NCBI RefSeq assembly: GCF_002941025.1
Contig: NZ_PTJS01000001.1
Location: 6,551,766 to 6,615,765 of the forward strand
From: Streptomyces sp. QL37
GTDB lineage: Bacteria > Actinomycetota > Actinomycetes > Streptomycetales > Streptomycetaceae
DNA length: 64,000 nt
Reading direction: 5' to 3'
The first letter of the stretch is position 1, and every line of letters starts with the position of its first letter. The translations under genes and the position numbers were made by a program. Positions 9,929 to 52,851 of this stretch are shown in pieces. The notes below the pieces were generated by a model. It did not search any database, was not told the DNA's origin, and saw only the letters and a program-made list of their open reading frames with translations.

Positions 9929-9998
9929 GCGTGCCTTGTCCGTGGCGGGAGGGGGGCGGGGCGGCCGGCGGGCGGGGGGACGCGGGCGGAGAAAGCCG

Positions 9999-10034: not shown

Positions 10035-10047
10035 CAGGTCGTACGGT

Positions 10048-10337: not shown

Positions 10338-10339
10338 GG

Positions 10340-10548: not shown

Positions 10549-10549
10549 C

Positions 10550-16286: not shown

Positions 16287-16309
16287 CGGGCGCAAGGCAT
16301 ACTCGACTG

Positions 16310-17724: not shown

Positions 17725-17839
17725 CCGCGCGGCCTGCGGGGGCTGCCGCCGGTCCACAGGGTGCGCGTGACAGGCTGGGAGCTCTGACCGGCTGATCAAC
17801 ACGGGCCCGGAGGCCCGCGCGCGCTGCGGAAGGCACAAC

Positions 17840-26025: not shown

Positions 26026-26194
26026 CGCTGGGTGCCTCCTGGTACATGGCGTTCATGACAAAAGGGACGGGCGTCCCCGGTCTTCCAACGCGCGACCGTA
26101 CCCCGGAGTGCCCGCCGCTTGTCACCTCGGAGACGTAGACTTCCACGCTGTCCCCCTCAGCCGTCATCCCGAGTTCCTCCGGAGGCACAGCGCC

Positions 26195-29100
26195 GTGACC
26201 AAGCCGCCCTTCACGCACCTGCACGTCCACACCCAGTACTCGCTGCTGGACGGTGCCGCGCGGCTCAAGGACATGTTCGAGGCGGCGAACACGATGGGCA
26301 TGTCGCACATCGCGATGACCGACCACGGCAACCTCCACGGCGCCTACGACTTCTTCCACTCGGCCAAGAAGGCCGACGTGACGCCGATCATCGGGATCGA
26401 GGCGTACGTCGCCCCCGCGTCCCGCAAGCACAAGCGCAAGATCCAGTGGGGCCAGCCGCACCAGAAGCGGGACGACGTCTCGGGTTCCGGTGGTTACACC
26501 CACAAGACGATCTGGGCGGCCAACAGCACGGGACTGCACAACCTCTTCAAGCTCTCCTCGGACGCGTACGCCGAGGGCTGGCTGCAGAAGTGGCCGCGCA
26601 TGGACAAGGAGACCATCTCCCAGTGGTCCGAGGGCCTGATCGCCTCCACCGGGTGCCCCTCGGGCGAGCTGCAGACCCGCCTGCGCCTCGGCCAGTTCGA
26701 CGAGGCGGTCAAGGCGGCCTCCGAATACCAGGACATCTTCGGCAAGGACCGGTACTTCCTGGAGCTGATGGACCACGGCATCGACATCGAGCGCCGCGTC
26801 CGCGACGACCTGCTGCGGGTCGGCAAGAAGCTCGGCATCCCGCCGCTCGTGACCAACGACTCGCACTACACCTACGCCCACGAGGCGACCGCGCACGACG
26901 CGCTGCTCTGCATCCAGACCGGCAAGAACCTCTCCGACCCGGACCGCTTCCGCTTCGACGGCACGGGCTACTACCTGAAGACGACGGACGAGATGTACGC
27001 CGTCGACTCCTCGGACGCCTGGCAGGAGGGTTGCGCCAACACCCTCCTCGTCGCGCAGCAGATCGACACCACCGGGATGTTCGAGAAGCGCGACCTGATG
27101 CCGAAGTTCGACATCCCGGAGGGCTTCACCGAGGTCACCTGGTTCCAGGAGGAGGTCCGGGTCGGCATGGCCCGCCGCTACCCCGGAGGCGTCCCCGAGG
27201 ACCGGCAGAAGCAGGCCGAGTACGAGATGGACATCATCATCCAGATGGGGTTCCCGGGGTACTTCCTGGTCGTCGCCGACTTCATCATGTGGGCCAAGAA
27301 CAACGGCATCGCGGTCGGCCCCGGCCGTGGTTCCGCCGCCGGTTCGATCGTCGCGTACGCCATGGGCATCACCGACCTCGACCCGATCACCCACGGGCTG
27401 ATCTTCGAGCGCTTCCTCAACCCCGAGCGCGTCTCCATGCCCGACGTCGACATCGACTTCGACGAGCGCAGGCGCGTCGAGGTGATCCGGTACGTCACGG
27501 AGAAGTACGGCGCCGACAAGGTCGCCATGATCGGCACCTACGGCAAGATCAAGGCCAAGAACGCGATCAAGGACTCCGCCCGCGTCCTCGGCTACCCCTA
27601 CGCGATGGGCGACCGACTCACCAAGGCCATGCCCGCCGACGTCCTCGGCAAGGGCATCGACCTCAGCGGCATCACCGACCCCAAGCACCCGCGCTACAGC
27701 GAGGCGGGCGAGATCCGGGGGATGTACGAGAACGAGCCGGACGTCCAGAAGGTCATCGACACCGCCAAGGGCGTCGAGGGCCTCGTCCGGCAGATGGGTG
27801 TCCACGCCGCCGGCGTGATCATGTCCAGCGAGCCCATCGTCGACCACGCCCCGGTCTGGGTGCGGCACACCGACGGCGTCACCATCACGCAGTGGGACTA
27901 CCCGCAGTGCGAGTCGCTCGGCCTGCTGAAGATGGACTTCCTCGGCCTGCGCAACCTGACGATCATGGACGACGCCATCAAGATGGTGAAGGCCAACAAG
28001 GGCATCGACCTGGAGATGCTCTCCCTGCCCCTGGACGACCCCAAGACGTACGAGCTGCTCTGCCGCGGCGACACGCTCGGGGTCTTCCAGTTCGACGGCG
28101 GCCCCATGCGTTCGCTGCTGCGCCAGATGCAGCCCGACAACTTCGAGGACATCTCCGCCGTCTCGGCCCTCTACCGGCCGGGCCCGATGGGAATGAACTC
28201 GCACACGAACTACGCCGAGCGCAAGAACGCCCGGCAGGAGATCACCCCGATCCACCCGGAGCTGGAGGAGCCCCTCAAGGAGGTCCTCGGGCTCACCTAT
28301 GGCCTGATCGTCTACCAGGAGCAGGTGCAGAAGGCCGCCCAGATCGTCGCCGGGTACTCGCTCGGCGAGGCCGACATCCTGCGCCGCGTGATGGGTAAGA
28401 AGAAGGCCGACGAGCTGGCGAAGAACTTCGTCCTCTTCGAGGCGGGCGCCAAGAAGAACGGCTTCTCCGACGCGGCGATCAAGGCCCTGTGGGACGTGCT
28501 GGTGCCCTTCGCCGGGTACGCGTTCAACAAGGCGCACTCCTCCGCGTACGGCCTGGTCACCTACTGGACCGCCTACCTCAAGGCGAACTACCCCGCCGAG
28601 TACATGGCGGCCCTGCTGACCTCCGTCAAGGACGACAAGGACAAGTCCGCGGTCTACCTCAACGAGTGCCGGCGCATGGGCATCAAGGTGCTCCCGCCGA
28701 ACGTCAACGAGTCCGAGTCGAACTTCGCCGCCCAGGGTGACGACGTGATCCTCTTCGGGCTGACCGCCGTCCGCAACGTCGGGCAGAACGTGGTCGACTC
28801 GATCATCAGGTGCCGCAAGGCGAAGGGGAAGTACTCCACGTTCCCCGACTTCCTCGACAAGGTCGAAGCGGTCGTCTGCAACAAGCGCACCGTCGAGTCG
28901 CTGATCAAGGCCGGCGCCTTCGACGAGATGGGGCACACCCGCAAGGGGCTCGTCGCCCATCACGAGCCGATGATCGACAACGTGGTGCAGGTCAAGCGCA
29001 AGGAGGCCGAGGGGCAGTTCGACCTCTTCGGCGGCGGCGAGACGGACAGCGACGAACCCGGCTTCGGCCTCGACGTGGAGTTCTCCGACATCGAGTGGGA

Positions 29101-29731
29101 GAAGTCCTACCTGCTCGCGCAGGAGCGCGAGATGCTCGGGCTGTACGTCTCCGACCACCCGCTCTTCGGCCTGGAGCACGTCCTGTCCGACAAGTCGGAC
29201 GCGGCGATCTCGCAGCTCACCGGCGGTGAGCACTCCGACGGCGCGATCGTCACCGTGGGGGGCATCATCTCCGGCCTCCAGCGCAAGATGACCAAGCAGG
29301 GCAACGCGTGGGCCATCGCGACCGTGGAGGACCTCGCGGGCTCCATCGAGTGCATGTTCTTCCCCGCGACCTACCAGCTGGTCTCCACCCAGCTCGTCGA
29401 GGACACCGTCGTCTTCGTCAAGGGACGCCTCGACAAGCGCGAGGACGTGCCGCGCCTCGTCGCCATGGAGATGCAGGTCCCCGACATCTCCAACGCCGGG
29501 TCCAACGCACCCGTCATCCTGACGATCCCGACAGTCAGGGTCACCCCGCCCATGGTCAGCCGGCTCGGCGAGGTCCTCAGCAACCACCGCGGCGACACCG
29601 AGGTGCGCATCAGGCTCCAGGGCCCCCGCAAGACCACCGTGCTCCGGCTCGACCGGCACCGGGTCAAGCCGGATCCCGCCCTCTTCGGCGACCTGAAGGT
29701 GCTGCTCGGCCCGTCCTGCCTGGCCGGCTGA
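26195..29731 (+). CDS. dnaE: DNA polymerase III alpha subunit DnaE
   Basis: This is the replicative polymerase subunit, 1178 residues long. The PHP domain opens with FTHLHVHTQYSLLDGAARL. The palm contains GPGRGSAAGSIVAYAMGITD and the catalytic aspartates in PDVDIDFDERRR, and RPGPMG follows. A helix-hairpin-helix region precedes the OB fold (VTVGGIISGLQRKMTKQGNAWA). The GTG start sits 9 bases after GGAGG and gives MTKPPFTHLH; the frame is open further upstream without coding character. Confidence 0.97.
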   Translation: MTKPPFTHLHVHTQYSLLDGAARLKDMFEAANTMGMSHIAMTDHGNLHGAYDFFHSAKKADVTPIIGIEAYVAPASRKHKRKIQWGQPHQKRDDVSGSGGYTHKTIWAANSTGLHNLFKLSSDAYAEGWLQKWPRMDKETISQWSEGLIASTGCPSGELQTRLRLGQFDEAVKAASEYQDIFGKDRYFLELMDHGIDIERRVRDDLLRVGKKLGIPPLVTNDSHYTYAHEATAHDALLCIQTGKNLSDPDRFRFDGTGYYLKTTDEMYAVDSSDAWQEGCANTLLVAQQIDTTGMFEKRDLMPKFDIPEGFTEVTWFQEEVRVGMARRYPGGVPEDRQKQAEYEMDIIIQMGFPGYFLVVADFIMWAKNNGIAVGPGRGSAAGSIVAYAMGITDLDPITHGLIFERFLNPERVSMPDVDIDFDERRRVEVIRYVTEKYGADKVAMIGTYGKIKAKNAIKDSARVLGYPYAMGDRLTKAMPADVLGKGIDLSGITDPKHPRYSEAGEIRGMYENEPDVQKVIDTAKGVEGLVRQMGVHAAGVIMSSEPIVDHAPVWVRHTDGVTITQWDYPQCESLGLLKMDFLGLRNLTIMDDAIKMVKANKGIDLEMLSLPLDDPKTYELLCRGDTLGVFQFDGGPMRSLLRQMQPDNFEDISAVSALYRPGPMGMNSHTNYAERKNARQEITPIHPELEEPLKEVLGLTYGLIVYQEQVQKAAQIVAGYSLGEADILRRVMGKKKADELAKNFVLFEAGAKKNGFSDAAIKALWDVLVPFAGYAFNKAHSSAYGLVTYWTAYLKANYPAEYMAALLTSVKDDKDKSAVYLNECRRMGIKVLPPNVNESESNFAAQGDDVILFGLTAVRNVGQNVVDSIIRCRKAKGKYSTFPDFLDKVEAVVCNKRTVESLIKAGAFDEMGHTRKGLVAHHEPMIDNVVQVKRKEAEGQFDLFGGGETDSDEPGFGLDVEFSDIEWEKSYLLAQEREMLGLYVSDHPLFGLEHVLSDKSDAAISQLTGGEHSDGAIVTVGGIISGLQRKMTKQGNAWAIATVEDLAGSIECMFFPATYQLVSTQLVEDTVVFVKGRLDKREDVPRLVAMEMQVPDISNAGSNAPVILTIPTVRVTPPMVSRLGEVLSNHRGDTEVRIRLQGPRKTTVLRLDRHRVKPDPALFGDLKVLLGPSCLAG

Positions 29732-34370: not shown

Positions 34371-34778
34371 GCCGTCCGCCGGCGTCGGCGGCCGGACCCC
34401 CGTGCTCTGCGGCCGGTGAGTATCCCGTACGGCGGTGCGTGTCCTGTCGAGGAAGTGGACCCGGGTGGTGTTTCCCGGGGCTCCGGGGCACCGCATGACC
34501 GCTGAGCCGGACGACACCCTTTCGAAGGATGGGGAACCGGCCATCGCACGTCCTTGCGAATTCTGAATTCCGCATTCCGCTCACGCATTACGCCCTGCTC
34601 GGCGCCGGTATTCGTGGGCTCGGGGGTGATCTGTTCGGCACGCCCTTCGAGCTGTTCGGAGCGCCCTTTCAGCCAGAAAGGGTGAGCGGGATTCTCAAAT
34701 CGGGAAGTCCCTCGATAGCCTTTTTCTCGGCGCTGTGGGAATCAGCCTGCCGCGCTCCTTCCTATTTCAGGAGGAATT
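34302..34778 (+). promoter_or_regulatory. Region upstream of the RiPP precursor gene; probable promoter/operator
   Basis: No gene is supported in these 477 bases. The part from about 34550 is distinctly less G+C-rich. It holds GAATTCTGAATTC (34558-34570) and a pair of near-identical 17-mers starting CTGTTCGG and ending CGCCCTT at 34631-34647 and 34652-34668. Their spacing of 21 bases is two helical turns, so a dimeric activator could bind one face. The precursor ribosome-binding site AGGAGGAATT ends directly before its ATG. Confidence 0.5.
34631..34668 (+). repeat. Direct repeat pair, 21-base period, upstream of the precursor gene
   Basis: The 17-mers CTGTTCGGCACGCCCTT and CTGTTCGGAGCGCCCTT differ at two positions. 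They lie 111 bases or more upstream of the precursor start. The helical-turn spacing suggests a regulator site, but no regulator gene is in the cluster. Confidence 0.5.
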
Positions 34779-34904
34779 ATGGGCGAGTCACGCAACGAGC
34801 AGACCATCCTCGACGACATCGAAGACCTCGACAGCCTGGAAGTCCTGGAGGCCGAGGACCTGGACGAGAGCGTCGCCTTCCACGCGTTCCGCTTCAAGAA
34901 CTGA
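34779..34904 (+). CDS. RiPP precursor peptide, biphenomycin-type (41 aa, core FRF)
   Basis: This small gene has a perfect ribosome-binding site (AGGAGGAATT). Residues 1-31 form an acidic leader with at least 14 Asp/Glu and regularly spaced Leu/Ile/Val (ILDDIEDLDSLEVLEAEDL), typical of leader peptides recognised by partner or RRE domains. The C-terminus is VAFHAFRFKN. Phe37-Arg38-Phe39 would become ortho-Tyr, Orn and ortho-Tyr if the MNIO, arginase and B12 radical SAM genes downstream act on it; Lys40-Asn41 would be a follower. Seven maturation and export genes follow on the same strand. The chemistry is inferred. Confidence 0.85.
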   Translation: MGESRNEQTILDDIEDLDSLEVLEAEDLDESVAFHAFRFKN

Positions 34905-34921
34905 CCGAAGGACCGACGCAG

Positions 34922-34957
34922 GCCTGCCGTCGGCCGGGAAACCGCCCGGTGGCAGGC
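34922..34957 (+). terminator. Hairpin between precursor and exporter genes (possible attenuator)
   Basis: GCCTGCC (34922-34928) pairs with GGCAGGC (34951-34957), enclosing an inner stem CCGGG (34934-34938) / CCCGG (34945-34949). It starts 17 bases after the precursor stop. In RiPP operons such partial terminators let the precursor be made in excess over the enzymes; that role is inferred here. Confidence 0.5.
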
Positions 34958-34983
34958 TCCTCGAGAAAGGTCTCGCGTTCCCG

Positions 34984-36414
34984 GTGAGAACGTATCTTCA
35001 GCTGCTCGGAAATCGGCGTTTCGCCGGGCTATGCCTTGCGCAGGCTGTTTCTCTGCTCGGTGACGCATTCTTTCCGATCATCGTCGTCGTGGCGGCGGCG
35101 CAGTCGGGAACGACAGCGGAGACCATCGGAGCGGTATTCGCCGCCCGCTTCATCGCACTCGGCGGTGTCGTCCTCTTCAGCGGCGCGGTTCTCGACCGGG
35201 TCAACCCCGTCGCCGCGGCGGTCACCGCGGATGCCACCCGCTTCCTCGCGCTCATCGCGCTGGCCCTCCTCTGGGACGGCCGGCTGGACGCCGTCATCCT
35301 CGGCGTCGCCGTCCTCATCGGCCTGTGCGAAGCGGTGAGTGAACCGGCCCTGCTGCTGATCACCCCCCAGGTGCTGCGCAAGGACGCGCGCGCGGCCAGG
35401 AAGCCTGACGGTGAAACCGACGCGGCCGACGGCTCAGGCGGTTCCGACCCGGAGGAAGCCGCGGTCACCGCCGCGTACGGCCTCCTCGAAGGCATGCGCA
35501 ACACCTCCGGCATCGTCGGCCCCACCCTTGCCGCCACGCTCGTCGCCGTTCTCAGCTCGTCGGCGGGAGCCGTCGCCGCCGCCGTGGCATTCGGCCTGTC
35601 CGCGGTCGTGACCCGCTGGGCAGGTGCCCGGTACGCGGCACGCCCCGTGCCGGACAGCCCCGTGCCGGAGGGGCTCGCGAAGGCCGGACCGGCCGACGGG
35701 ACCTCCGACGAGGCGGAGCAGCCCGATGAGTCACTGCTGCGCTCCGCCCTCGGCGGACTCGCCGTGCTGTGGCGGGTCCGGTGGCTGCGGCACGTGCAGA
35801 TTCTCGCCGTCGTCCACGTCCTGCTCGCCGTCGGACCGTGGATGGTCGCCCTGCCGGTGTTCCTGCTGGAAACCGGACACAGCGCCACCGTCTACGGCTT
35901 CGTGCTCGGCTCCTTCGCGGTGGGCACCGTCGTGGGCGCACTGGTCGGAGGGCGCGTCACCGGCCGGAGCAGGGGCCTGTACTCGCTGGCGCTGCTCGGT
36001 CTCTTCGGCGTGACCGTGCTTGCTCCCGTGGCGACCGGATCGGTGCTGCTGCTCACCGCCGCGTTCGTCGCGGGCGGCATCGGCCAGCAGGCGTTCGACG
36101 TCGTCAAGATGGCCGGGCTGCGCCGGGAGGTGCCGGAGAGGCTGCACGGCCGGGCGTTCTCCGCCGACTTCTTCTTCTCCTTCGCCTCGCTCCCCCTCGG
36201 TCAGCTCTTCGGCGCGGTGCTGCTCCGCTTCGCCGACGCCCGCACGATCATGCTGTGGGCAGGCGTCCTCGTCCTGGTGACCACCGCCGCCGCGATGCTC
36301 AGCCCGGACGCGCGCCGCTTCTCCTCGGCACCCCTGCCCGCCCCCAGGACGCCCCCCGCGCCGGCGCCGGCCGCGCCGCTTCCGGAAAGGGTGCGGGATG
36401 CAGGGACGAGTTGA
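34984..36414 (+). CDS. MFS transporter, probable peptide exporter
   Basis: The 476-residue product starts VRTYLQLLGNRRFAGLCLAQ and has about twelve hydrophobic helices, fitting the enterobactin-exporter/MefE-like DHA3 group of the major facilitator superfamily. An Asp/Glu-rich cytoplasmic loop of about 60 residues separates the halves near the middle and the C-terminus is Pro/Ala-rich. The GTG start, with GAAAGG upstream, fits best. The stop overlaps the arginase-like gene by 17 bases. Export and self-resistance for the RiPP product are inferred from context. Confidence 0.8.
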   Translation: MRTYLQLLGNRRFAGLCLAQAVSLLGDAFFPIIVVVAAAQSGTTAETIGAVFAARFIALGGVVLFSGAVLDRVNPVAAAVTADATRFLALIALALLWDGRLDAVILGVAVLIGLCEAVSEPALLLITPQVLRKDARAARKPDGETDAADGSGGSDPEEAAVTAAYGLLEGMRNTSGIVGPTLAATLVAVLSSSAGAVAAAVAFGLSAVVTRWAGARYAARPVPDSPVPEGLAKAGPADGTSDEAEQPDESLLRSALGGLAVLWRVRWLRHVQILAVVHVLLAVGPWMVALPVFLLETGHSATVYGFVLGSFAVGTVVGALVGGRVTGRSRGLYSLALLGLFGVTVLAPVATGSVLLLTAAFVAGGIGQQAFDVVKMAGLRREVPERLHGRAFSADFFFSFASLPLGQLFGAVLLRFADARTIMLWAGVLVLVTTAAAMLSPDARRFSSAPLPAPRTPPAPAPAAPLPERVRDAGTS

Positions 36415-37660
36415 CCTGTTCGAGGAGCACGGCGAGGTCGCGGCGCTGTGGCCGCAGAGCCCCTACCGCGACCGCACCGTCGTCTGCTTCGATCGCCACC
36501 TGGACCTCAAGCCCCTCGCCCCCGGCGGGGAGGAGGCACTGCACGCTGCGGCAGGTGCCGGGACGTCCCCTGCGGAGCTGCTGCGCCGGTTGCCCGTGCG
36601 CGGGGTGCCCGGCGCCTTCGGGCTCGACGACTTCTGGTCCGCCGCCGCCCTCGCCGCCGCCCTCACCGACCTGGTGTGGGTGCCGAGCTGGACCTCGTAC
36701 GCGGGCTGGGAGAGCAGGGCGGTGGACTGCGTGTCCCTCATCGCCACCGGCGGTGTCCCGGTCGACGCGCGGACCGGCGACTGCTGCCTGGCGGTGACGC
36801 TCTGCGGCGTACGGCTCTCGGTCGTACCGCCCGACCTCCTCGCCCGCCACCTGGACCGGCACGTGACCGGAGACGTCGTCACCGACATCGACCTGGACTG
36901 GCTGGTGGACGAGCATGGCAGGGCCGACCACTCCGTCGACGACCTGGCCGAACTGGTCGCTGCGTGCGGGGGCGAACTGTCCGCGATGACGTGGTCCACC
37001 CGCTCCGGGTTCCTGCCCGGCGAGTTCCGGGGGGTCGGCCCGGACGTCGCGGGACGGCTGGGGCTGAGGGCCCGGGAGTCCTCCTTCCTGCCCTCCACCC
37101 CGTGGCCGGAGGACCTGATGCTGCGTGTCCACCAGGGCGCCGGGCTCCCGGCTCACGACGAACCCGCGGCGGAGGGCGGGGAGTCCGGTGCGGGGGATCC
37201 CTCGCCAGGAGTGGCGGTGGCCCTGCGCGGCCTGGCGAACGCCTCCGCGAGTCCCGAACGGGCCCAGGAGTGCTACGAGCGGGCGACCGCCCAGGGGTAC
37301 CGGTCGAGCTGGCTGGCGTACAAGATCGGCGCCGCGTACTACGCGCGGGGCGATCACAGCGCCGCGAGGGACCGACTGCGCGAGGCCGTCGCGCTCGACC
37401 CGCGCGACACCCTCGCGATGCACGCGCGGGTCCTGGCGGCCCGCGCCACCCTGCGCCTGGACGGCCCCGGCGCCGCGCTGGCGGAGTTCCGCGCCGTGGC
37501 CGAGGAGCTGCCGCTGCGCGCCGGGGTCTGGCGCACCGTCCGGGTGCTCGCCGAGGCGCGGGGCGACCCGGAAGGCGCAGAAGCGGCACGGGACCGTCTG
37601 GACCTCATCGAACGGCTGACGCGGGCAGGGACCGCCGAGCGGAGCACGGGAGGGGGATGA
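36398..37660 (+). CDS. UPF0489-like peptide arginase fused to TPR repeats
   Basis: Residues 1 to about 250 look like the UPF0489 branch of the arginase fold. VVCFDRHLDLKPL supplies a DxHxD metal motif (Asp32, His34, Asp36) and TDIDLDWLV a second DxDxD cluster (Asp163, Asp165, Asp167). Members such as OspR are known to convert Arg to Orn in RiPP precursors. From about residue 265 the protein has tetratricopeptide-like helices (ANASASPERAQECYERATAQGY, IGAAYYARGDHSAARDRLREAVALDP), perhaps for binding the precursor or another enzyme. The core has exactly one Arg, Arg38. The start overlaps the exporter gene. Confidence 0.75.
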   Translation: MQGRVDLFEEHGEVAALWPQSPYRDRTVVCFDRHLDLKPLAPGGEEALHAAAGAGTSPAELLRRLPVRGVPGAFGLDDFWSAAALAAALTDLVWVPSWTSYAGWESRAVDCVSLIATGGVPVDARTGDCCLAVTLCGVRLSVVPPDLLARHLDRHVTGDVVTDIDLDWLVDEHGRADHSVDDLAELVAACGGELSAMTWSTRSGFLPGEFRGVGPDVAGRLGLRARESSFLPSTPWPEDLMLRVHQGAGLPAHDEPAAEGGESGAGDPSPGVAVALRGLANASASPERAQECYERATAQGYRSSWLAYKIGAAYYARGDHSAARDRLREAVALDPRDTLAMHARVLAARATLRLDGPGAALAEFRAVAEELPLRAGVWRTVRVLAEARGDPEGAEAARDRLDLIERLTRAGTAERSTGGG

Positions 37661-37663
37661 GCG

Positions 37664-39580
37664 ATGAGCGACGTACTGCTGGTGATGCCGCCCGTGAGCG
37701 AGGCCGTCCAGTTCCCGTACCTGGCGCTGCCGCAGCTCGCCGCCGCCTGGACGGCTCAGGACTACCGGGTCCGCACACTCGATCTGAACCTGGAGTACCG
37801 CGCCCGCGTCCTGCTCCGCAGTCAGGAACCGTCCGCCGCGGACGCCCCGGATCCCGGCGCGTCTCCGACGAGCGCGGGCGAGATCTACCGGACCGTCAGT
37901 GAGCGGTACCGGGCCCGGCACGGCGCCCGGCTGCTGGAGACCGCCCGCGACCGCTCCACCGGTTTCGCCCAGGAGACGGCCATCCAGGCGTCGGTCCGCT
38001 ACGTCACCCAGCAGGCCTCCCAGGACGGCTGGATCGTCGACGGCCCGCTGCTGCTGTCCGAACTGGACAGGTACGTCGACGCCGGCCGCGAGGGCTGGTC
38101 GGCGCGCTGGTGCGCCGACCGCCTCCAGGAGGTGCTGTCCGACGACCCGCCACGGATGCTGGCCTTCTCCGTGCCCTTCTTCAGCCAGCTCGTGCCCGTC
38201 CTCACCCTGTGCGCGCTGCTCAAGGAACGGCGTCCCGCGCTGCGGATCGCGCTCGGCGGACCCACCGTGCAGATGTGGGCGGCACCGCTGCGCCGGCACG
38301 TCACCGCCTCCCGCGCCGTCGACCACTGGTGCCTCGGCCACGGCGAGGACTTCCTCACCCGCGTCCTGGGCGCGGGCGACCGCGATCCGGGGACGAGGGG
38401 CGGAACGGGCACCCGAGAGGAGACCACCGGCGCGGGCGGCGCCGTGCGGGAGCGGACGGGGCTCGCGGACGGCTTCGTGCTGAGCGAGCAGCCGATGCCG
38501 GACTTCGCGCCGTTCGACTTCTCCGTCTACACCAACATGGCCCACCAGTTCCCCTACCGGCTCACGGTCGGCTGCTACTGGGGGAAGTGCACCTTCTGCT
38601 CGTACGGCAACCGCTACCGGGACGCCCGTGCCTTCCAGCAGATCGACCCGGAGGTGGCCGCCGGACACCTGGTGGCGCTGTCCCGCCGGCTGGGGATGAC
38701 CGATGTGGCGGTCACCGACGAGAACACCGGCCTGCGCCATCTGCTGCGCGTGACGGAGGCGGTCCGCCGGCGCGGTGTGTCGCTCACCTTCCGGGTCCGG
38801 GCGCGTCTGGAACGCGAACTGGCCGACCCCGCCTTCTGCGAACGGCTGCGCGCGGCGGGCTGTGTCCAGCTGTCGACCGGTTTCGAGACCGCGAACCAAG
38901 GCATTCTCGACTCCCTGCACAAGGGCCAGGACGCGGCGCACGCGGAACGCGCCGTACTCAACCTCACCCGGGCCGGGATCGTCACCAACCTGTCGTTCAT
39001 GGACGGCTTCGATCACGACGACGCCGTCCAGGGGTCTCGTGAGACGGTCGAGGTGGTGCAGCGACACCCGGCGGACATGGGCCTGGACACCATGCAGCTG
39101 GTCGTCGCCGAGCCGGGCAGCTACCTGTGGGCCGGCCGGCGGCGCCAGGACGACGACGCCTACCTGATCACCAACGAGGGCCTCGCCTTCGCCGGAGGCC
39201 GGGTCGGCGGCGCGCTCCTCGAGGACACCGCGACGGAGGAGGCCAGGCAGCGGCTGCTGCGGATGACCGTCGAGGCGGTGCCGGACGCCGAACGGGCCGT
39301 CCGGCCCGACCTCTCCTCGCGCGCGCGGGACCGGCCCGCGGCGGTCACCGGGCCGGCGCTGCTGGCCCGGCCGCGCTTCGGAGTGGCGCTCGACTCCGTC
39401 CGTACGCGCTGGTTCCTGGCCGACGTCGCCTGGCCACGGATGGCGGCCGTACCCGCGGGCGTGGAGCGCACCCCCGGCGGCGGCCTCACCTCCGAGGAGC
39501 CGGGGGCGCGCCGCTGGCTGGCGCAGATGATCGACAAGAGGCTGCTCGTGCTCGACCCACCGGAAGCGGAGAGTGCCTGA
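37664..39580 (+). CDS. B12-binding radical SAM enzyme, predicted biaryl cross-linking maturase
   Basis: This 638-residue protein begins with a cobalamin-binding Rossmann domain split by an insert: VLLVMPPVSEAVQFPYLALP at the start and MLAFSVPFFSQLVPVLTLCA ... IALGGPTVQMW at about residues 165-210. No DxHxxG motif is seen. The radical SAM cluster site is GCYWGKCTFCSY, with Cys304, Cys309 and Cys312, a CX4CX2C spacing. There is no SPASM domain. Next to a MNIO and a Phe-Arg-Phe precursor, C-C coupling of two phenolic rings is the most likely job. It starts 3 bases after the arginase-like gene. Confidence 0.8.
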   Translation: MSDVLLVMPPVSEAVQFPYLALPQLAAAWTAQDYRVRTLDLNLEYRARVLLRSQEPSAADAPDPGASPTSAGEIYRTVSERYRARHGARLLETARDRSTGFAQETAIQASVRYVTQQASQDGWIVDGPLLLSELDRYVDAGREGWSARWCADRLQEVLSDDPPRMLAFSVPFFSQLVPVLTLCALLKERRPALRIALGGPTVQMWAAPLRRHVTASRAVDHWCLGHGEDFLTRVLGAGDRDPGTRGGTGTREETTGAGGAVRERTGLADGFVLSEQPMPDFAPFDFSVYTNMAHQFPYRLTVGCYWGKCTFCSYGNRYRDARAFQQIDPEVAAGHLVALSRRLGMTDVAVTDENTGLRHLLRVTEAVRRRGVSLTFRVRARLERELADPAFCERLRAAGCVQLSTGFETANQGILDSLHKGQDAAHAERAVLNLTRAGIVTNLSFMDGFDHDDAVQGSRETVEVVQRHPADMGLDTMQLVVAEPGSYLWAGRRRQDDDAYLITNEGLAFAGGRVGGALLEDTATEEARQRLLRMTVEAVPDAERAVRPDLSSRARDRPAAVTGPALLARPRFGVALDSVRTRWFLADVAWPRMAAVPAGVERTPGGGLTSEEPGARRWLAQMIDKRLLVLDPPEAESA

Positions 39581-40515
39581 TGGACAAACTTGGGCTCGGC
39601 CTGGGCATGGACCTCGTCTGGGGCGAACGCATCGGATTCGAGAAGACGGGGGAGGGCCGCCCGACCGACCAGGTCGAGGCGTTCCTGCGGCGCAACGCGC
39701 AGACGTACGACTACATGTTCGTCGCCTTCCAGCCCATCGACTACGGCCCGCTCACACCCGAGCGCTACTTCCCCGCGTACGACAGCCTCTTCGCACTGTT
39801 CGGAGACGGCCGCCCGCGCGCCTTCCACCACACCCTGCTCAACACCGGTTCTCCGGAGCGGTACGAGCGGTCCGCCGTCGCGGACTTCACCAACGCGCTG
39901 GTCGAACGCTACGGATTCCGCTGGATCATCGAGGATCTGGGGATCTGGTCGCTGGGGGGCCGCAGCCTGCCGTACCCGATGCCGCCCGTACTGACGGCGG
40001 AGGGGCTGCGGCGCTGCGTCGCGGGGGTCGCGGAGTGGCGCGAGCGGCTGCGGGCGCCGCTGTCCGTGGAGTTCCCCGGCTTCACCGAGGGCGGCAGCTT
40101 CCTGGTCGGCACGCTGGACGCCTTCGCGTTCTTCGACACCGTCGTCCGGGAGACGGGCGTGCACGCGACGATCGACATCGGTCACATCCTCGCCTACCAG
40201 TGGCTGATGGGGCGCACCGGAGCGCGCATGTTCGACGGTCTCGAGGCGCTGCCGCTCGACCGCTGCCACGAGGTGCACCTCTCCGGCTGCCAGATCGTCG
40301 ACGGCCGCTTCCGGGACCTGCACCACGGCGTGCTCCTCGACGAGCAGCTCACCCTGCTGGAACACCTGCTGCCGATGATGCCGCGGCTGACCGGAATCAC
40401 CTACGAGGACCCCAAGTTCACCGCCGACGGGGTGCTGGTGCCCAAGTCGCGGCCGAACGCGGAGCGCCTCTTCTCCCTCGTACGCGACTGGAAGGAGACC
40501 GCCCATGCCGCATGA
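39580..40515 (+). CDS. DUF692-family multinuclear non-heme iron oxygenase (MNIO)
   Basis: The 311-residue TIM-barrel protein has the metal-ligand signature of the DUF692/MbnB-TglH group: RAFHHTLLNTG, IIEDLGIWS, VEFPGFTEGG, TIDIGHILAYQ, HEVHLSGCQ, DLHHGVLL and ITYEDPKF. MNIOs act on RiPP side chains using two or three iron ions. Given two Phe residues flanking Arg in the core, ortho-hydroxylation of Phe37 and Phe39 is the predicted reaction. The ATG overlaps the previous stop by one base (TGATG). The partner protein gene overlaps its end by 11 bases. Confidence 0.82.
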   Translation: MDKLGLGLGMDLVWGERIGFEKTGEGRPTDQVEAFLRRNAQTYDYMFVAFQPIDYGPLTPERYFPAYDSLFALFGDGRPRAFHHTLLNTGSPERYERSAVADFTNALVERYGFRWIIEDLGIWSLGGRSLPYPMPPVLTAEGLRRCVAGVAEWRERLRAPLSVEFPGFTEGGSFLVGTLDAFAFFDTVVRETGVHATIDIGHILAYQWLMGRTGARMFDGLEALPLDRCHEVHLSGCQIVDGRFRDLHHGVLLDEQLTLLEHLLPMMPRLTGITYEDPKFTADGVLVPKSRPNAERLFSLVRDWKETAHAA

Positions 40516-41338
40516 GGCCACAGCGGTGGACCGCGCGGACGGGTACGACGTCGACGGCGGGCCCGGTCCGGGCGACGCGGCCGAGGCCGGGCGGCACGGA
40601 CGCATCCTGGGGGTCCTCGACCGGCTGCTGTACGACCAGCGGTTCCGCTCCGCGTTCGCCGAGGGGGGCCCGGCCGGCATGCGGCCGCCGCTCGACGCGG
40701 ACCTGATCGAGGTCTTCGACCGGGTGGACATGACGGAACTGCGGTTGGTCGGGCGTAACATCCGCTCCGCGGTGGTCAGCGGCGGCACGGGCACGGGGCA
40801 GGGGCTCAGGGGGGCCTTCGCGCGCACCCTGGAGACGATCCGGGAGCGGCACGGCCACGGGACCAACGAGGTGGCCGAACTCTTCGTCGCCTCACCGCAG
40901 TTCCAGCACTTCCGCGACGTGCCCTACTCCCCCCGGGGGCGTGGTCTCTCGCTGCCCGAGTGCTTCCACCGGTTCATGGCTGCCGGACCGTCCTTCGACC
41001 CCGGGTGCGCTCTTGAGCCGCTCGCACACCACGAGGCCGCCTCCGCCGTCGCCCGCGCGATCGCCACGGGCGCGGAGGCCACCTTCGACGTCACGCTGCG
41101 CGACTCGGCCTTTCACGGGGGGACCTTCTGCGCCTTCCGCGACTACTCCGAGGCGCCCGCCGACTGGGACCTGCGCCCCACGATGTTCCTCGCGGGCGCG
41201 GAGCGCTGCGTCATCGGCCCGGCCGGACGCCCCCTCTTCGACGCGCTGACCGCCGTCCTGGCCGGTCACGACGTGAGTACACCACCCGACGTACGGGCGA
41301 AACTGCTACAGCGACTGCGGGCATGGGGGCTGCGATGA
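40505..41338 (+). CDS. Predicted MNIO partner protein (precursor recognition)
   Basis: Most DUF692 RiPP oxygenases require a small partner that binds the leader peptide, and this 277-residue protein is encoded directly behind the MNIO with an 11-base overlap. I do not recognise a firm family. It is mostly alpha-helical, with an acidic N-terminus, a helical block VLDRLLYDQRFRSAFAEGG and a C-terminal part containing SLPECFHRFMAAGPSF and DVTLRDSAFHGGTFCAFRDY. No catalytic motif is evident. The partner role is inferred from position. Confidence 0.55.
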   Translation: MPHEATAVDRADGYDVDGGPGPGDAAEAGRHGRILGVLDRLLYDQRFRSAFAEGGPAGMRPPLDADLIEVFDRVDMTELRLVGRNIRSAVVSGGTGTGQGLRGAFARTLETIRERHGHGTNEVAELFVASPQFQHFRDVPYSPRGRGLSLPECFHRFMAAGPSFDPGCALEPLAHHEAASAVARAIATGAEATFDVTLRDSAFHGGTFCAFRDYSEAPADWDLRPTMFLAGAERCVIGPAGRPLFDALTAVLAGHDVSTPPDVRAKLLQRLRAWGLR

Positions 41339-42120
41339 CCACACGCATTCTGCCGGAGGCGGACGCGTTCGACCTGGACCTCTTCTACCGCGAGCACTGG
41401 CGCCGCCGCCCGGCCCTCTGGCGCGGCGTGGGCCCGCGCTTCCTGGCACCCTCCCTGGACTGGCCCGACATCGAGGCCCTGGAGCGCCGCCTCGAAGCGG
41501 CACAGCGGGAGCCAGGGTCCGGAGCACAGGTGCGGCGGCGGTCCGACGGCACGGTGCTCTTCGTCAACCAGGCGCAGCACACCCTGCCGGAACTGGCCGA
41601 CGCCTGCGCGAAGCTGACCGACCTGTTCGGCTGGGACGAGTGCACGGCGGACCTGTCGGTGACCCGGGGCCGCGGCGCTGGAATCGGCTGCCACTTCGAC
41701 CACAGTGACAACTTCGTCGTGCAGCAGCGGGGTTCGAAGACCTGGTTGGTGGGTCTGCCCGAGGACACCGCGCCGGAGCGGCAGCGCAGCCGCATGCTGG
41801 AGACCAAGGGCTTCGTCCCCTCCGGCCACCTGCCCGAGGAACCGCTGCGCGCGGAGCTGCACCCCGGCGACGTGCTCTATCTGCCGCTGTTCGCACCGCA
41901 CGAGGGCGTGGAGGGGGACGACGGTGAGGGCTCCGTCAGTGTCTCCTTCTCCTACAACGCCCGGAGCGCACTCTCCCAGCACCTCAAGCCCCTGCTGAGC
42001 GCGCTGTCGAGGGAACCGGACTGGTGGCGGCCGCTGCCGCTCGGCGCCCCCGACACCGAACGCCTCGAGGACGCGTTGCGCCGGGCCCTGCGGGCGGTGA
42101 CGGGCGTGCCCTCGCCGTGA
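41335..42120 (+). CDS. JmjC/cupin-type Fe(II) 2-oxoglutarate oxygenase
   Basis: The 261-residue protein resembles the JmjC/YcfD (RoxA) ribosomal-oxygenase group. LFYREHWRRRPALWRG at the N-terminus is typical. The iron ligands are visible as GCHFDHSDNFVVQQRGSKTW (His120, Asp122) and PGDVLYLPLFAPHEGVEG (His189); the Lys in GSKTW would bind 2-oxoglutarate. Here it may hydroxylate C4 of ornithine or a benzylic position, both found in biphenomycins. ATG 41335 overlaps the previous stop (ATGA); an in-frame ATG lies four codons upstream. Confidence 0.78.
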   Translation: MTTRILPEADAFDLDLFYREHWRRRPALWRGVGPRFLAPSLDWPDIEALERRLEAAQREPGSGAQVRRRSDGTVLFVNQAQHTLPELADACAKLTDLFGWDECTADLSVTRGRGAGIGCHFDHSDNFVVQQRGSKTWLVGLPEDTAPERQRSRMLETKGFVPSGHLPEEPLRAELHPGDVLYLPLFAPHEGVEGDDGEGSVSVSFSYNARSALSQHLKPLLSALSREPDWWRPLPLGAPDTERLEDALRRALRAVTGVPSP

Positions 42121-43166
42121 CCGACGTCCTGGCCGCGGCGTTGGCGGCGGCGCGCCTGGAACTGGGGCCGCGGGCGCGGATCGTCCCGGACGAGCGGGGC
42201 GGGCTGTGGCGGGTCCGCATCAGCCTCGGCCCTCCGGACCACGGCACGACGCCCCAGTGGGGCGCCGCCGCCTACGACCCGCTCTTCGTGGCCGGACAGT
42301 TGCGGCAGGGCGTACGGCAGCTCCTCGACGACCAGGCGCTGCTGCGGCTGCGCTCGCCGCTGGCGGAGCCGGTGGCGGGACCGGCGCTGCTGTCACCCAC
42401 GGCAGCCGGGGTACTGGCGCACGAATGCTTCGGGCACACGAGCGAGGCCGACAACTACCTCTCCGACGGCGGCGCCCTCGGCCGCGTCCTCGGCGACCGC
42501 TGGACGCCGGTCCCGCTGACCGTACGGGACCGGCCCGGGGCCCGTCCGTACGCGGGCAGTTACGCGCGCGACGACGAGGGCACCGCCGCGCGGACCGTCA
42601 CGCTGCTGCGCGAGGGCTACTGGACGGGGCTGCTCACCGACCGGAGCACCCGCGCGCTCAGCGGCGGCCGCAGCACGGGGCACGGACGGGGCCGCAGGGG
42701 CGCGGTCGTCCCGCGCTGCAGCGTGCTGGAGGTCGCGGCCGGCCGGGACACGGCGCAGGTGCTGCGCGGCCGGATGGGCGACGGCTGGCTGCTCGGCACG
42801 GCGATCGGCGGCTTCTCCGTGCGCGGGCACCTGATCCTGGAACTGCTGTGGGCGCGCCGGGTACGGGCGGGCCGCGTGACCCGGGAGGTCGTCGGACCGG
42901 TGGCGATCTGCGCACGCAAGGCGGCGCTGGCCGGCCGGATCACGGCTGTCGGCGACGACGTGACGGTGCACAGTTCGCCCTACACCTGCGTCAAGGCCGG
43001 GCACGAGGTCGGCTCGACCCTCATCAGCCCGTCCCTGCTGCTCGACCGCTGCGTCCTGCGCCCGCTCGCGGACGTCGAACGGCTGCTGACCCGCTCGGGA
43101 GCTCCGCGCGTACCCATGGCGCGCGGGGCCGGTGACGAATCCGGGGGCGCGGCGGAACCCGCGTAG
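42117..43166 (+). CDS. TldD/PmbA-like metalloprotease, predicted leader peptidase
   Basis: The 349-residue protein has the TldD zinc motif HECFGHTSEAD (HExxxH; His102, Glu103, His107) and later TldD-like segments GGFSVRGHLILELLWARRV and VHSSPYTCVKAGHEVGST. TldD normally pairs with TldE to digest unstructured peptides, for example processing microcin B17. No TldE gene is next to it. It is shorter than canonical TldD (about 480 residues), lacking much of the N-terminal part. The GTG start overlaps the JmjC stop (GTGA). Leader removal is inferred. Confidence 0.78.
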   Translation: MTDVLAAALAAARLELGPRARIVPDERGGLWRVRISLGPPDHGTTPQWGAAAYDPLFVAGQLRQGVRQLLDDQALLRLRSPLAEPVAGPALLSPTAAGVLAHECFGHTSEADNYLSDGGALGRVLGDRWTPVPLTVRDRPGARPYAGSYARDDEGTAARTVTLLREGYWTGLLTDRSTRALSGGRSTGHGRGRRGAVVPRCSVLEVAAGRDTAQVLRGRMGDGWLLGTAIGGFSVRGHLILELLWARRVRAGRVTREVVGPVAICARKAALAGRITAVGDDVTVHSSPYTCVKAGHEVGSTLISPSLLLDRCVLRPLADVERLLTRSGAPRVPMARGAGDESGGAAEPA

Positions 43167-48281: not shown

Positions 48282-49604
48282 GTGATCTCTCGAATCGATC
48301 TGCGCGGTACCGCCCTCCCCGAGGGCGGCGCCCTGCGCGACCTGCTGCCCCGTGCCGAGTTCGACGTGGAAGCCGCCCTGGAGACGGTGCGGCCCATCTG
48401 CGAGGACGTACGCCATCGTGGCTCGGCCGCAGTGATCGAGTGGGGAGAGAAATTCGACGGCGTGCGCCTGGACTCGATCCGCGTCCCCGTCGGCGCGATC
48501 ACCGAGGCGCTGGAACAGCTCGACCCCGCCGTGCGCGCCGCCCTGGAGGAGTCGATCCGCCGCGCCCGCCTCGTCCACCGCGAGCAGCGCCGCACCACGC
48601 ACACCACCCAGGTCGTCCCCGGCGGCACGGTCACCGAGAAGTGGGTGCCCGTCGAGCGCGTCGGCCTCTACGTGCCGGGCGGGCGCTCGGTCTACCCCTC
48701 GTCCGTCGTCATGAACGTCGTCCCGGCCCAGGAGGCCGGTGTCGAGGGCATCGCCGTCGCCTCCCCGCCGCAGGCGGAGTTCGGCGGACTGCCGCACCCC
48801 ACGATCCTGGCCGCCTGTGCCCTGCTCGGGGTGGACGAGGTCTACGCCGCCGGCGGAGCCCAGGCCGTCGCGATGTTCGCGTACGGCACCGAGGACTGCC
48901 TGCCCGTGAACCTCGTCACGGGCCCCGGCAACATCTACGTCGCCGCCGCCAAGCGCCTCCTCAAGGGCCGCATCGGCATCGACGCCGAGGCCGGTCCCAC
49001 CGAGATCGCGATCCTCGCCGACGCGAGCGCCGACCCGGTGCACGTCGCCGCCGACCTGATCAGCCAGGCGGAGCACGACCCGATGGCCGCCGCGGTCCTC
49101 GTCACCGACTCCGAGGAGCTGGCCGCCGCCACCGAGGCCGAGCTGACGCCGCAGGTCGCCGCGACCAAGCACGTCACGGACCGGATCGAGCCCGCCCTGG
49201 CCGGCCGCCAGTCCGCGATCGTCCTGGTCAACGACCTGGAGGACGGCCTCAAGGTCGTCGACGCGTACGCCGCCGAGCACCTGGAGATCCAGACGGAGAA
49301 CGCCGCAGCCGTCGCCGACCGGGTCCGCAACGCCGGAGCGGTCTTCGTCGGCCCCTGGTCGCCCGTCTCCCTCGGCGACTACTGCGCCGGCTCCAACCAC
49401 GTCCTGCCCACCGGCGGCTGCGCCTGCCACTCCTCGGGTCTGTCCGTGCAGTCCTTCCTGCGCGGCATCCACATCGTCGACTACACCCGCGACGCGCTCG
49501 CCGAGGTCACCCACCACGTGGTGACCCTCGCCGAGGCGGAGGACCTCCCCGCACACGGCGCCGCGCTCAAGGCCAGGTTCGGCTGGAAGGTTCCGCAAGC
49601 GTGA
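48282..49604 (+). CDS. hisD: Histidinol dehydrogenase HisD
   Basis: HisD oxidises L-histidinol to L-histidine in two NAD-dependent steps. The 440-residue product shows [47 protein letters not shown] and the catalytic Glu-His region [11 protein letters not shown]. The GTG start gives VISRIDLRG. Its stop overlaps hisC (GTGA). It heads an eight-gene operon. Confidence 0.97.
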
Positions 49605-50719
49605 CGAACCGCACCAACGCCTGGGACGCGCTCCCGATCCGCGACGAACTGCGCGGCCAGTCCCCGTACGGGGCGCCCCAGCTCGACGTACCGGTCCGGC
49701 TGAACACCAACGAGAATCCGTACTCCCTGCCCGACGCGCTCGTCGACCGCATCGCCGAGCGGGTCCGTGAGGCCGCCCGCGACCTCAACCGCTACCCCGA
49801 CCGCGACGCCGTGGAGCTCCGCACCGAGCTCGCCCGCTACCTCACCCGCACCGCGGGCCACGAGGTCGCGGCCGCCAACGTATGGGCGGCCAACGGATCC
49901 AACGAGGTCCTCCAGCAGCTGCTTCAGACCTTCGGCGGCCCGGGGCGCACCGCGATCGGCTTCGAGCCCTCGTACTCCATGCACGCCCTGATCTCCCGCG
50001 GCACCGGCACCGGCTGGATCTCCGGCCCGCGCAACGAGGACTTCACCATCGACGTGGAGGCCGCGAAGAAGGCCATCGCCGAGCACCGCCCCGAGGTCGT
50101 CTTCATCACCTCGCCCAACAACCCGACCGGTACCGCCGTGGACGCGGAGACCGTCGTGGAGCTCTACGACGCCGCCCAGGCCGCCCGGCCCTCGATGGTC
50201 GTCGTCGACGAGGCGTACGGCGAGTTCAGCCACAGCCCCTCGCTGCTGCCGCTGATCGAGGGCCGTCGCCACCTGGTGCTCTCGCGCACCATGTCCAAGG
50301 CGTTCGGCGCCGCCGGCCTGCGCCTGGGCTATCTCGCCGCCGACCCCGCCGTCGTCGACGCGGTCCAGCTGGTGCGCCTGCCGTACCACCTGTCCTCGAT
50401 CACCCAGGCCACCGCGCTCGCCGCCCTGGAGCACACCGATACGCTGCTCGGGTACGTCGCGCAGCTCAAGAGCGAGCGCGACCGGCTGGTCGACGGACTG
50501 CGGGAGCTCGGCTTCGCCGTCACCGACTCGGACGCCAACTTCGTCCAGTTCGGCCGCTTCGCCGACAGCCACACCGCCTGGCAGCAGATCCTCGACCGGG
50601 GCGTCCTGGTCCGGGACAACGGCGTACCGGGGTGGCTGCGGGTCTCCGCGGGAACCCCGGCAGAGAACGACGCGTTCCTCGATGCGGTGCGCGAACTGAA
50701 GAAGGAGCACGACGCATGA
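49601..50719 (+). CDS. hisC: Histidinol-phosphate aminotransferase HisC
   Basis: HisC is the PLP-dependent aminotransferase of the pathway, 372 residues. [36 protein letters not shown] and the PLP-lysine motif [18 protein letters not shown] are all present. The GTG start overlaps the hisD stop and its own stop overlaps the hisB start by ATGA. Confidence 0.97.
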
Positions 50720-51309
50720 GCCGCGTAGGCAGGGTGGAACGGACCACCAAGGAGACCTCCGTGCTCGTCGAGATCAACCTCGACGGCACCGGCAAGGTCG
50801 ATGTCGCGACCGGGGTCGGCTTCTACGACCACATGCTCGACCAGCTCGGCCGGCACGGGCTCTTCGACCTCACGGTCAAGACCGAGGGCGACCTGCACAT
50901 CGACTCGCACCACACCATCGAGGACACCGCCCTCGCGCTCGGCGCCGCCTTCAAGCAGGCGCTCGGCGACAAGGTCGGCATCTACCGCTTCGGCAACTGC
51001 ACCGTCCCGCTGGACGAGTCGCTCGCCCAGGTCACCGTCGACCTCTCCGGCCGCCCCTACCTGGTGCACACCGAGCCGGAGAAGATGGCGCCGATGATCG
51101 GCGAGTACGACACGACGATGACCCGGCACATCCTGGAGTCCTTCGTCGCCCAGGCGCAGATCGCCCTGCACGTGCACGTCCCGTACGGCCGCAACGCCCA
51201 CCACATCGTGGAGTGCCAGTTCAAGGCGCTGGCCCGCGCCCTGCGTTACGCCAGCGAGCACGACCCGCGCGCGGCCGGCATCCTTCCGTCCACGAAGGGC
51301 GCCCTGTGA
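50716..51309 (+). CDS. hisB: Imidazoleglycerol-phosphate dehydratase HisB
   Basis: A 197-residue monofunctional HisB. Mn ligands lie in [36 protein letters not shown] and the C-terminal [20 protein letters not shown]. There is no fused phosphatase domain, as usual in actinobacteria. It is coupled to hisC, and the small membrane protein gene overlaps its end. Confidence 0.97.
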
Positions 51310-51473
51310 CCGGCCTCAACACCGTTCTGATCATCGTCGGCCTCTTCCTGGCCGGCGGCGTCTACTCCTTCTGGAAGCAGGGCATGCCCAAGGGCGTCGT
51401 CGTGCTCCTCGGGATCGGCTCCGTGATGTGCCTGGTGGCGGGCATCATGCGGATCCAGGGACTCTGGGACTGA
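51306..51473 (+). CDS. Small two-helix membrane protein inside the his operon
   Basis: A 55-residue protein with two hydrophobic segments ([18 protein letters not shown] and [18 protein letters not shown]) joined by a short KQGMPKG loop. The GTG overlaps the hisB stop, so translation is coupled. Its function is unknown. Confidence 0.75.
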
Positions 51474-51484
51474 GGTAGAGGACT

Positions 51485-52126
51485 GTGAGCGACAAGAAGA
51501 AGATCGTCGTCTTCGACTACGGCTTCGGCAACGTCCGTTCCGCCGAGCGGGCCCTCGCCCACGTCGGCGGGGACGTGGAGATCACCCGCGACTTCGACAC
51601 CGCGATGAACGCCGACGGGCTGCTCGTCCCCGGCGTCGGCGCGTTCTCCGCCTGCATGGCGGGTCTGAAGCAGGCGCGCGGCGAATGGATCATCGGCCGC
51701 AGGCTGTCCGGCGGCCGTCCCGTCATGGGCATCTGCGTAGGCATGCAGATCCTGTTCGAGCGCGGCATCGAGCACGGCGTCGAGACGGAGGGCCTCGACG
51801 AGTGGCCCGGCACCGTCGGACCGCTGAAGGCCGACGTCGTCCCGCACATGGGCTGGAACACCGTCGAAGCCCCGGAGGGCTCCCAGCTCTTCGCCGGTCT
51901 GGACCCCGAGTCCCGGTACTACTTCGTGCACTCCTACGCGGCGCACGACTGGTCCCTCGAAGTGACCAACGCCAAGATCCGTGCCCCCAAGGTCACCTGG
52001 GCGACGCACGGAGAGCGGTTCGTGGCCGCCGTGGAGAACGGCGCGCTGTGGGCCACCCAGTTCCACCCCGAGAAGTCCGGCGATGCCGGCGCCCAGCTGC
52101 TGACCAACTGGATCGAGACGCTGTAA
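51485..52126 (+). CDS. hisH: Imidazole glycerol phosphate synthase glutaminase HisH
   Basis: HisH supplies ammonia to HisF. The 213-residue class I glutaminase has the nucleophile in [13 protein letters not shown], the oxyanion region [11 protein letters not shown] and the catalytic His-Glu in [11 protein letters not shown]. The GTG start gives [19 protein letters not shown]. The priA start overlaps its TAA stop. Confidence 0.97.
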
Positions 52127-52851
52127 TGCCGAAGCTTGAACTGCTCCCCGCCGTAGACGTCCGCGACGGACAGGCCGTCCGCCTCGTGCACGGCGAATCC
52201 GGCTCCGAGACCTCCTACGGCTCCCCGCTCGAGGCGGCCCTCGCCTGGCAGAGCTCCGGCGCCGAGTGGCTGCACCTCGTCGACCTGGACGCCGCCTTCG
52301 GCACCGGCGACAACCGCGCGCTGATCGCCGAGGTGGCCGGCGCCATGGACATCAAGGTCGAGCTCTCCGGAGGCATCCGCGACGACGCCTCGCTGGAGGC
52401 CGCCCTCGCCACCGGCTGCCGCCGGGTCAACCTCGGCACCGCCGCCCTGGAGACCCCCGAGTGGGTCGCCAAGGTCATCGCCGAGCACGGCGACAAGATC
52501 GCCGTCGGCCTCGACGTCCGGGGCACCACGCTGCGCGGCCGCGGCTGGACCCGCGACGGCGGCGACCTCTACGAGACGCTCGCCCGCCTCGACTCCGAGG
52601 GCTGCGCCCGCTACGTGGTGACCGACATCGCCAAGGACGGCACCCTCCAGGGCCCCAACCTGGCCCTCCTGCGCGACGTCTGCGCCGCCACCGACAAGCC
52701 GGTCGTCGCCTCCGGCGGCGTCTCCTCGCTCGCCGACCTCCGCGCGATCTCCCTGCTCGTCCCGGAAGGCGTCGAGGGGGCCATCGTCGGCAAGGCGCTG
52801 TACGCCAAGGCGTTCACCCTCGAAGAGGCCCTCAAGGCGGTCGCCGGATGA
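52126..52851 (+). CDS. priA: Bifunctional HisA/TrpF isomerase PriA
   Basis: PriA is the actinobacterial barrel that isomerises both ProFAR (histidine) and PRA (tryptophan). The 241-residue protein begins [20 protein letters not shown], with [27 protein letters not shown] and the catalytic Asp in [15 protein letters not shown]. Assignment as PriA rather than HisA alone rests on the Streptomyces context and not on a motif I can prove. It is coupled to hisH and ridA. Confidence 0.9.

What the first reader, a model, noticed from the sequence alone, without database searches (positions are those of the whole stretch)
34779..43166. Compact RiPP cluster predicted to make a biphenomycin-type antibiotic
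A 41-residue precursor with core Phe-Arg-Phe is followed by seven coupled genes: exporter, arginase-fold protein, B12 radical SAM, MNIO, partner, JmjC oxygenase and TldD protease. Biphenomycin B is ortho-Tyr-(4-hydroxy-Orn)-ortho-Tyr with a biaryl bond between the rings; biphenomycin A carries one more benzylic hydroxyl. Each change from FRF has a matching enzyme here: MNIO for ortho-hydroxylation, B12 radical SAM for biaryl coupling, arginase for Arg to Orn, JmjC for a hydroxylation, TldD for leader removal. I recall, without being able to check, recent reports of MNIO/B12-rSAM/arginase pathways for biphenomycin-like peptides in other bacteria; the gene set here, with JmjC and TldD, looks like the full Streptomyces version.
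Basis: partly seen in the sequence, partly recalled or inferred. Interest (0 to 1): 0.95.

Follow-up and report, generated by a model that had tools for sequence, protein, structure and literature searches.

The report
Streptomyces biphenomycin B gene cluster
This bacterial DNA carries an eight-gene cluster that matches the recently published biphenomycin antibiotic pathway but lacks the gene thought to add the extra hydroxyl of biphenomycin A, so it is predicted to make biphenomycin B or a slightly longer form; the pathway itself is already known.

Summary
A 41-residue precursor (34779-34904, ending AFHAFRFKN) is followed by seven tightly coupled genes: MFS exporter, arginase/TPR protein, radical SAM, MNIO, MNIO partner, JmjC oxygenase and short TldD protease. 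The nine iron ligands predicted for PbsC and six Mn ligands predicted for PbsE have counterparts here. One claim fails: this is not 'the full Streptomyces version'. bipH, the HExxH hydroxylase assigned to biphenomycin A, is absent from the cluster, and one search of the own genome found only a 27% partial match. It is present in 4 of 7 related Streptomyces loci, including S. griseorubiginosus DSM 40469. Predicted product: biphenomycin B ([M+H]+ 473.203), or the same ring keeping a Lys-Asn tail (715.341); the two papers differ on who removes the tail. No chemistry was tested here. Verdict: a correct reading of an already solved pathway, and a bipH-less Streptomyces member of a known kind. It offers a natural test of BipH, whose assignment in the paper's main text rests on presence/absence. 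Side result: S. inusitatus has bipH but no bipG, predicting another congener.

The parts
34769..34774 (+). ribosome-binding site (AGGAGG) of bipA
   Evidence: sequence
34779..34904 (+). bipA, 41-aa precursor ending AFHAFRFKN
   Evidence: the AFHAFRF end is found in 8 of 8 loci (window included); in 6 of 6 database homologs
34887..34895 (+). codons of the predicted core Phe37-Arg38-Phe39; the tail Lys40-Asn41 follows
34984..36414 (+). bipB, MFS exporter (start codon uncertain)
   Evidence: PF07690
36398..37660 (+). bipC, peptide arginase with TPR repeats: EEHGE, DRHLD, DIDLD
37664..39580 (+). bipD, radical SAM with B12-binding-like domain; cluster motif CX4CX2C at 38573-38599
39580..40515 (+). 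bipE, MNIO; all nine predicted metal ligands present
40505..41338 (+). bipF, MNIO partner by position and orthology
   Evidence: no family match; fold model too poor to use
41335..42120 (+). bipG, JmjC oxygenase (an upstream ATG at 41323 is also possible)
   Evidence: PF08007; HxD...H conserved
42117..43166 (+). bipI, short TldD-type protease with HECFGH (start codon uncertain)
   Evidence: PF19289
42117..42120 (+). 4-base overlap of G and I, where bipH lies in S. griseorubiginosus

Best explanation
This is an eight-gene ribosomal-peptide cluster, with homologs of bipA to bipG and bipI but none of bipH, that is predicted to make the antibiotic biphenomycin B or the same ring with a Lys-Asn tail. 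Inferred by orthology to published enzymes: BipE with BipF would ortho-hydroxylate Phe37 and Phe39; BipC would turn Arg38 into ornithine; BipD would join the two rings by a carbon-carbon bond; BipG would hydroxylate ornithine at the gamma carbon; BipI would cut off the leader and possibly the tail; BipB would export the product. Without BipH the benzylic hydroxyl of biphenomycin A should not form. Shown here: the genes, their order, the active-site residues, the orthology, and no bipH ortholog in the searches made. No chemistry was tested here.
For: Gene order and core match the published clusters. Identities to S. griseorubiginosus DSM 40469 (L011), a stand-in for the published strain, are A 78, B 69, C 70, D 69, E 87, F 68, G 71 and I 69% over the aligned parts; its precursor is 41 aa ending FRFRS, as the paper describes. 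Nine PbsC metal ligands map with a constant offset of 14, and PbsE's six by motif position. bipH is absent between F and I, and the own genome has only a 27% partial match, while the same search finds L011's BipH at 4e-154. Peribacillus simplex_D, without bipH, makes only B.
Against: The published Streptomyces clusters carry bipH, so a bipH-less Streptomyces producer is an extrapolation. No BipH assay was seen in the main text of PMC12707348 (all four mentions read), so the link from 'no bipH' to 'no A' rests on presence/absence and annotation. The tail KN differs from RS. PbsP did no C-terminal cleavage. BipF's fold could not be checked. The B12-binding match is below Pfam's cut-off. L011 is not the published strain.
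Confidence: 0.85

Rival explanations
1. The product is biphenomycin A after all: an enzyme encoded elsewhere in the genome adds the benzylic hydroxyl.
For: The genome has two other genes of the HExxH family TIGR04267, and BipH itself was not seen assayed in the main text.
Against: One of them is only 27% identical to BipH over 120 residues; the other did not appear in the search with BipH of L014 at E <= 0.001. Both lie far from the cluster (C1 1.06 Mb and 7.0 Mb against 6.59 Mb).
Confidence: 0.05
2. The released product keeps the Lys-Asn tail: a biphenomycin C-like peptide without the benzylic hydroxyl, [M+H]+ 715.341.
For: PbsP removed only the leader in vitro; biphenomycin C keeps its Arg-Ser tail.
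Against: Sg_BipI and Ps_BipI cut on both sides of the core, also on each other's precursors with very different tails.
Confidence: 0.3
3. The cluster is intact in sequence but silent or non-producing.
For: Published titres are very low, and B. clarus ATCC 21929 with an orthologous cluster gave no linked product.
Against: All eight frames are open, third-position G+C is 0.87-0.93 and the catalytic residues are kept. None of this shows expression.
Confidence: 0.15

Closest known systems
bip of Streptomyces griseorubiginosus No. 43708 and bpm of S. filipinensis NRRL 3217 (PMC12707348, PMC12257519)
   Same: Same order A-B-C-D-E-F-G-I; 41-aa precursor with FRF core (S. griseorubiginosus); same enzyme families.
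   Different: No bipH here; tail Lys-Asn in place of Arg-Ser. Sequences of those two strains were not available; S. griseorubiginosus DSM 40469 (L011) stood in.
bip of Peribacillus simplex_D and pbs of strain BE23 (same papers)
   Same: No bipH; FHAFRF precursors; arginase, B12-rSAM, MNIO and partner, Orn hydroxylase, protease, MFS. P. simplex_D makes only biphenomycin B.
   Different: Three or four precursor copies there, one here; a different phylum (Bacillota). In pbs, the text lists B12-rSAM, MNIO, partner, arginase in that order.
Cluster in Streptomyces spinoverrucosus NBRC 14228 (L010)
   Same: Closest of the 7 loci (C 87%, E 92%) and also without bipH.
   Different: Tail Lys-Ala-Val-Ser. 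No product known to me.
Clusters with FHTFMF or YHxYxY precursors (PMC12257519)
   Same: Related MNIOs and B12-rSAMs.
   Different: They lack the arginase, which is present here.

Membership tests
biphenomycin-type RiPP cluster | precursor ending in an FHAFRF motif, leader first | tested here: met
   AFHAFRF at residues 33-39
biphenomycin-type RiPP cluster | MNIO of the PbsC/BipE kind with its metal ligands | tested here: met
   nine of nine ligands by constant offset; invariant in 8 rows
biphenomycin-type RiPP cluster | RRE-containing MNIO partner encoded next to it | tested here: inconclusive
   ortholog in place; the RRE could not be shown: no family match, model pLDDT 50
biphenomycin-type RiPP cluster | peptide arginase with EEHxE, DxHxD, DIDLD | tested here: met
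   (8 of 8 loci)
biphenomycin-type RiPP cluster | B12-dependent radical SAM enzyme | tested here: met
   Radical_SAM over cut-off; B12-binding only below cut-off; best NCBIfam match is a RiPP radical SAM family, also below cut-off
biphenomycin-type RiPP cluster | JmjC/cupin Orn hydroxylase | tested here: met
   JmjC_2 and conserved HxD...H; activity not tested
biphenomycin-type RiPP cluster | TldD-type protease without a TldE partner in the cluster | tested here: met
   a separate pair of TldD/PmbA-family genes lies at C1 6.905-6.908 Mb
biphenomycin A cluster | bipH (HExxH hydroxylase) | tested here: not met
   absent between F and I; only a 27% partial match in the genome
biphenomycin-type RiPP cluster | product with biaryl-linked ortho-Tyr pair around hydroxy-Orn | not testable with these tools
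   needs LC-MS and NMR

The most novel reading that the evidence does not exclude
A Streptomyces lineage (this strain and S. spinoverrucosus) has cleanly lost bipH and makes biphenomycin B with no A, possibly released with a new Lys-Asn tail ([M+H]+ 715.341); gain and loss of bipH and bipG across Streptomyces would then set which biphenomycin each strain makes.
Probability: 0.35. Interest if true: 0.42.

Novelty: new member of a known kind. Interest (0 to 1): 0.3.

Why it matters
Biphenomycins act strongly on Gram-positive bacteria but are made in tiny amounts, and B is the minor product of the known Streptomyces producer (about 0.01 against 0.1 mg/L). A Streptomyces cluster without bipH is a natural candidate source of B without A, and it makes BipH's role testable by comparison: in the paper's main text that role rests on presence/absence. 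The pathway logic was published in 2025, so this adds a member and a comparison, not a new principle.

Tried and rejected
Rejected: 'full Streptomyces version' (bipH absent). Rejected as BipH: the two TIGR04267 matches elsewhere in the genome. Known RNA elements: Rfam gave 0 gathering-level matches in the window. Promoter scan 0 found (0.0 expected); terminators 2 found (1.7 expected): uninformative. Plasmid collection: no match by DNA or by BipE protein. Phages and viral contigs were not searched.

BipF: one AlphaFold2 job, mean pLDDT 50, so no fold search was run. PDB by sequence: BipC matched TPR proteins and a few others through its C-terminal half; the listed best stretches all start at residue 258 or later, so the arginase part found nothing. 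BipE profile: one DUF692 protein, E 0.002.

Gain or loss of bipH: in a BipC tree read as rooted on the distant homologs, three bipH-bearing lineages lie between the two bipH-less ones, which suggests loss in the window's lineage (support on the path 0.79-0.97). The unrooted C+D+E tree has a node of 0.478 and equally allows two gains. Not settled. bipH was looked for only in the 8 loci, not in the other tree members.

Full report
What is there. The window lies in an 8.78-Mb genome in 5 contigs. The operon runs from 34779 to 43166 on the + strand: 41-aa precursor, MFS exporter, arginase/TPR protein, radical SAM protein, MNIO, a protein of no family, JmjC oxygenase, TldD-type protease. All eight frames are open, and from the exporter on each gene overlaps the next or is 3 bases away.

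Relatives. BipC was sought in 392 genomes of the genus: 3 have it at E <= 1e-20, own genome included. A phylum draw of 396 gave only the own genome. A scan of genome contigs with three aligned BipC proteins gave 7 loci, all Streptomyces; it used two peptide patterns and reaches close relatives only, so the Bacillota clusters of the papers were not expected and not found. In the 7 loci, A, B, C, D, E, F and I are present in 7 and G in 6. In L013, B, F and I each match in two pieces and bipH seems frame-broken, perhaps from sequencing errors. Window frames outside the operon gave one weak match to one locus, so the conserved unit has the edges named in the finding.

What is published. Of PMC12707348 I read the outline, parts 1-4 of 6, the Conclusion, and passages. 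Of PMC12257519 I read the abstract, sections 8, 9, 19, 20 and 21, part 1 of 2 of section 22, and passages. Supplements were not available. PMC12707348 describes in S. griseorubiginosus a 41-aa BipA ending FRFRS followed by bipB to bipI. It assigns BipEF to ortho-hydroxylation of both Phe, BipC to the middle Arg, BipG to Orn gamma-hydroxylation, BipD to the biaryl bond and BipI to cleavage on both sides of the core. BipH is given the hydroxyl that separates A from B; all four main-text mentions were read and none describes an assay. Peribacillus simplex_D lacks bipH and makes only B. More than 1,000 similar pathways are reported. PMC12257519 shows the same chemistry for pbs, except that its protease removed only the leader. 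Of PMC12452194 and PMC12703449 I saw passages only; other papers only as listings.

Tests of the match. L011 is S. griseorubiginosus DSM 40469, not the published strain, but its precursor is 41 aa and ends FRFRS and it has bipH between G and I. The window's proteins are 68-87% identical to its own over the aligned parts. PbsC's predicted iron ligands His97, Asp133, Glu178, Asp213, His216, His247, Asp260, His262 and Glu290 correspond, at a constant offset of 14, to H83, D119, E164, D199, H202, H233, D246, H248 and E276 here, all invariant in 8 rows. PbsE's His10, Asp31, His33, Asp35, Asp165 and Asp167 correspond by motif position to H11, D32, H34, D36, D165 and D167. PbsC and PbsE themselves could not be aligned. 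BipG keeps HxD...H in 6 of 6 rows (L013 was not included, L014 has no G). BipI keeps HECFGH in 7 of 7 loci examined (L013 left out).

The missing gene. bipH lies between G and I in L011, L012 and L013, and between F and I in L014. In L010, L015, L016 and the window no HExxH occurs in any forward frame from F to I. With BipH of L014 as query, the own genome gives only a 27% match over 120 residues, L010's genome a similar one, L015's and L016's none; L011, the positive control, gives 4e-154. So B is expected rather than A. Computed [M+H]+: 473.203 for B, 489.198 for A, 715.341 for B with Lys-Asn.

Tails. After FRF come KN (window, P0003, P0004), KAVS (L010), KSVS (P0002), KNIV (L015, L016), RS (L011, L013, P0005), AA (L014, P0006, P0007) and ATA (L012). 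P0002-P0007 are the six proteins returned; some come from the same genomes as the loci. Published BipI tolerates different tails, so the tail may matter little for the final product.

Verdict. The finding is real and its interpretation holds, apart from the bipH point. The system has been known since 2025. I did not see this locus named in the text that I read, but the supplements, which may list clusters, were not available, so I make no claim that it is unlisted. Interest is modest.

Noticed in passing
L014 (Streptomyces inusitatus JCM 4988), 14197-17106: bipH is present but bipG is absent: no G in the locus and no match in its genome at E <= 0.001, while two control genomes match. This predicts a biphenomycin with the benzylic but without the Orn hydroxyl.
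   Followed up: partly
38573-38599, and the same place in L010-L016: The radical SAM cluster motif is CX4CX2C, not CX3CX2C (the canonical form is recalled), in 8 of 8 BipD proteins. A term search of both papers found no mention; one paper search for the motif with cobalamin gave two papers, seen as listings.
   Followed up: partly
41335-42120: BipG's nearest solved relatives by profile are ribosomal protein L16 arginine hydroxylases (4nub, 1.7e-9), which fits an enzyme that hydroxylates an Arg-derived residue.
   Followed up: no
42420-42437 (HECFGH in bipI): The protease motif here is HExxxH, whereas PMC12707348 writes HExxH for BipI.
   Followed up: no
own genome C1:2044661-2045458: A second MNIO-family gene, a strong match (258 bits), not examined.
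   Followed up: no
own genome, L001 and L002: Two other HExxH-family (TIGR04267) genes, in frames of 611 and 761 aa; from the sequence the second looks like a radical SAM protein with a HExxH tail (my reading, not tested).
   Followed up: partly
L013 (Streptomyces sp. DHE7-1), 8628-17883: B, F and I match in two pieces each and bipH seems frame-broken; sequencing errors or decay.
   Followed up: no
25907-29731 and 48282-53998: The operon sits between a DNA polymerase III alpha gene and histidine biosynthesis genes, a housekeeping setting that the related loci do not share nearby.
   Followed up: no
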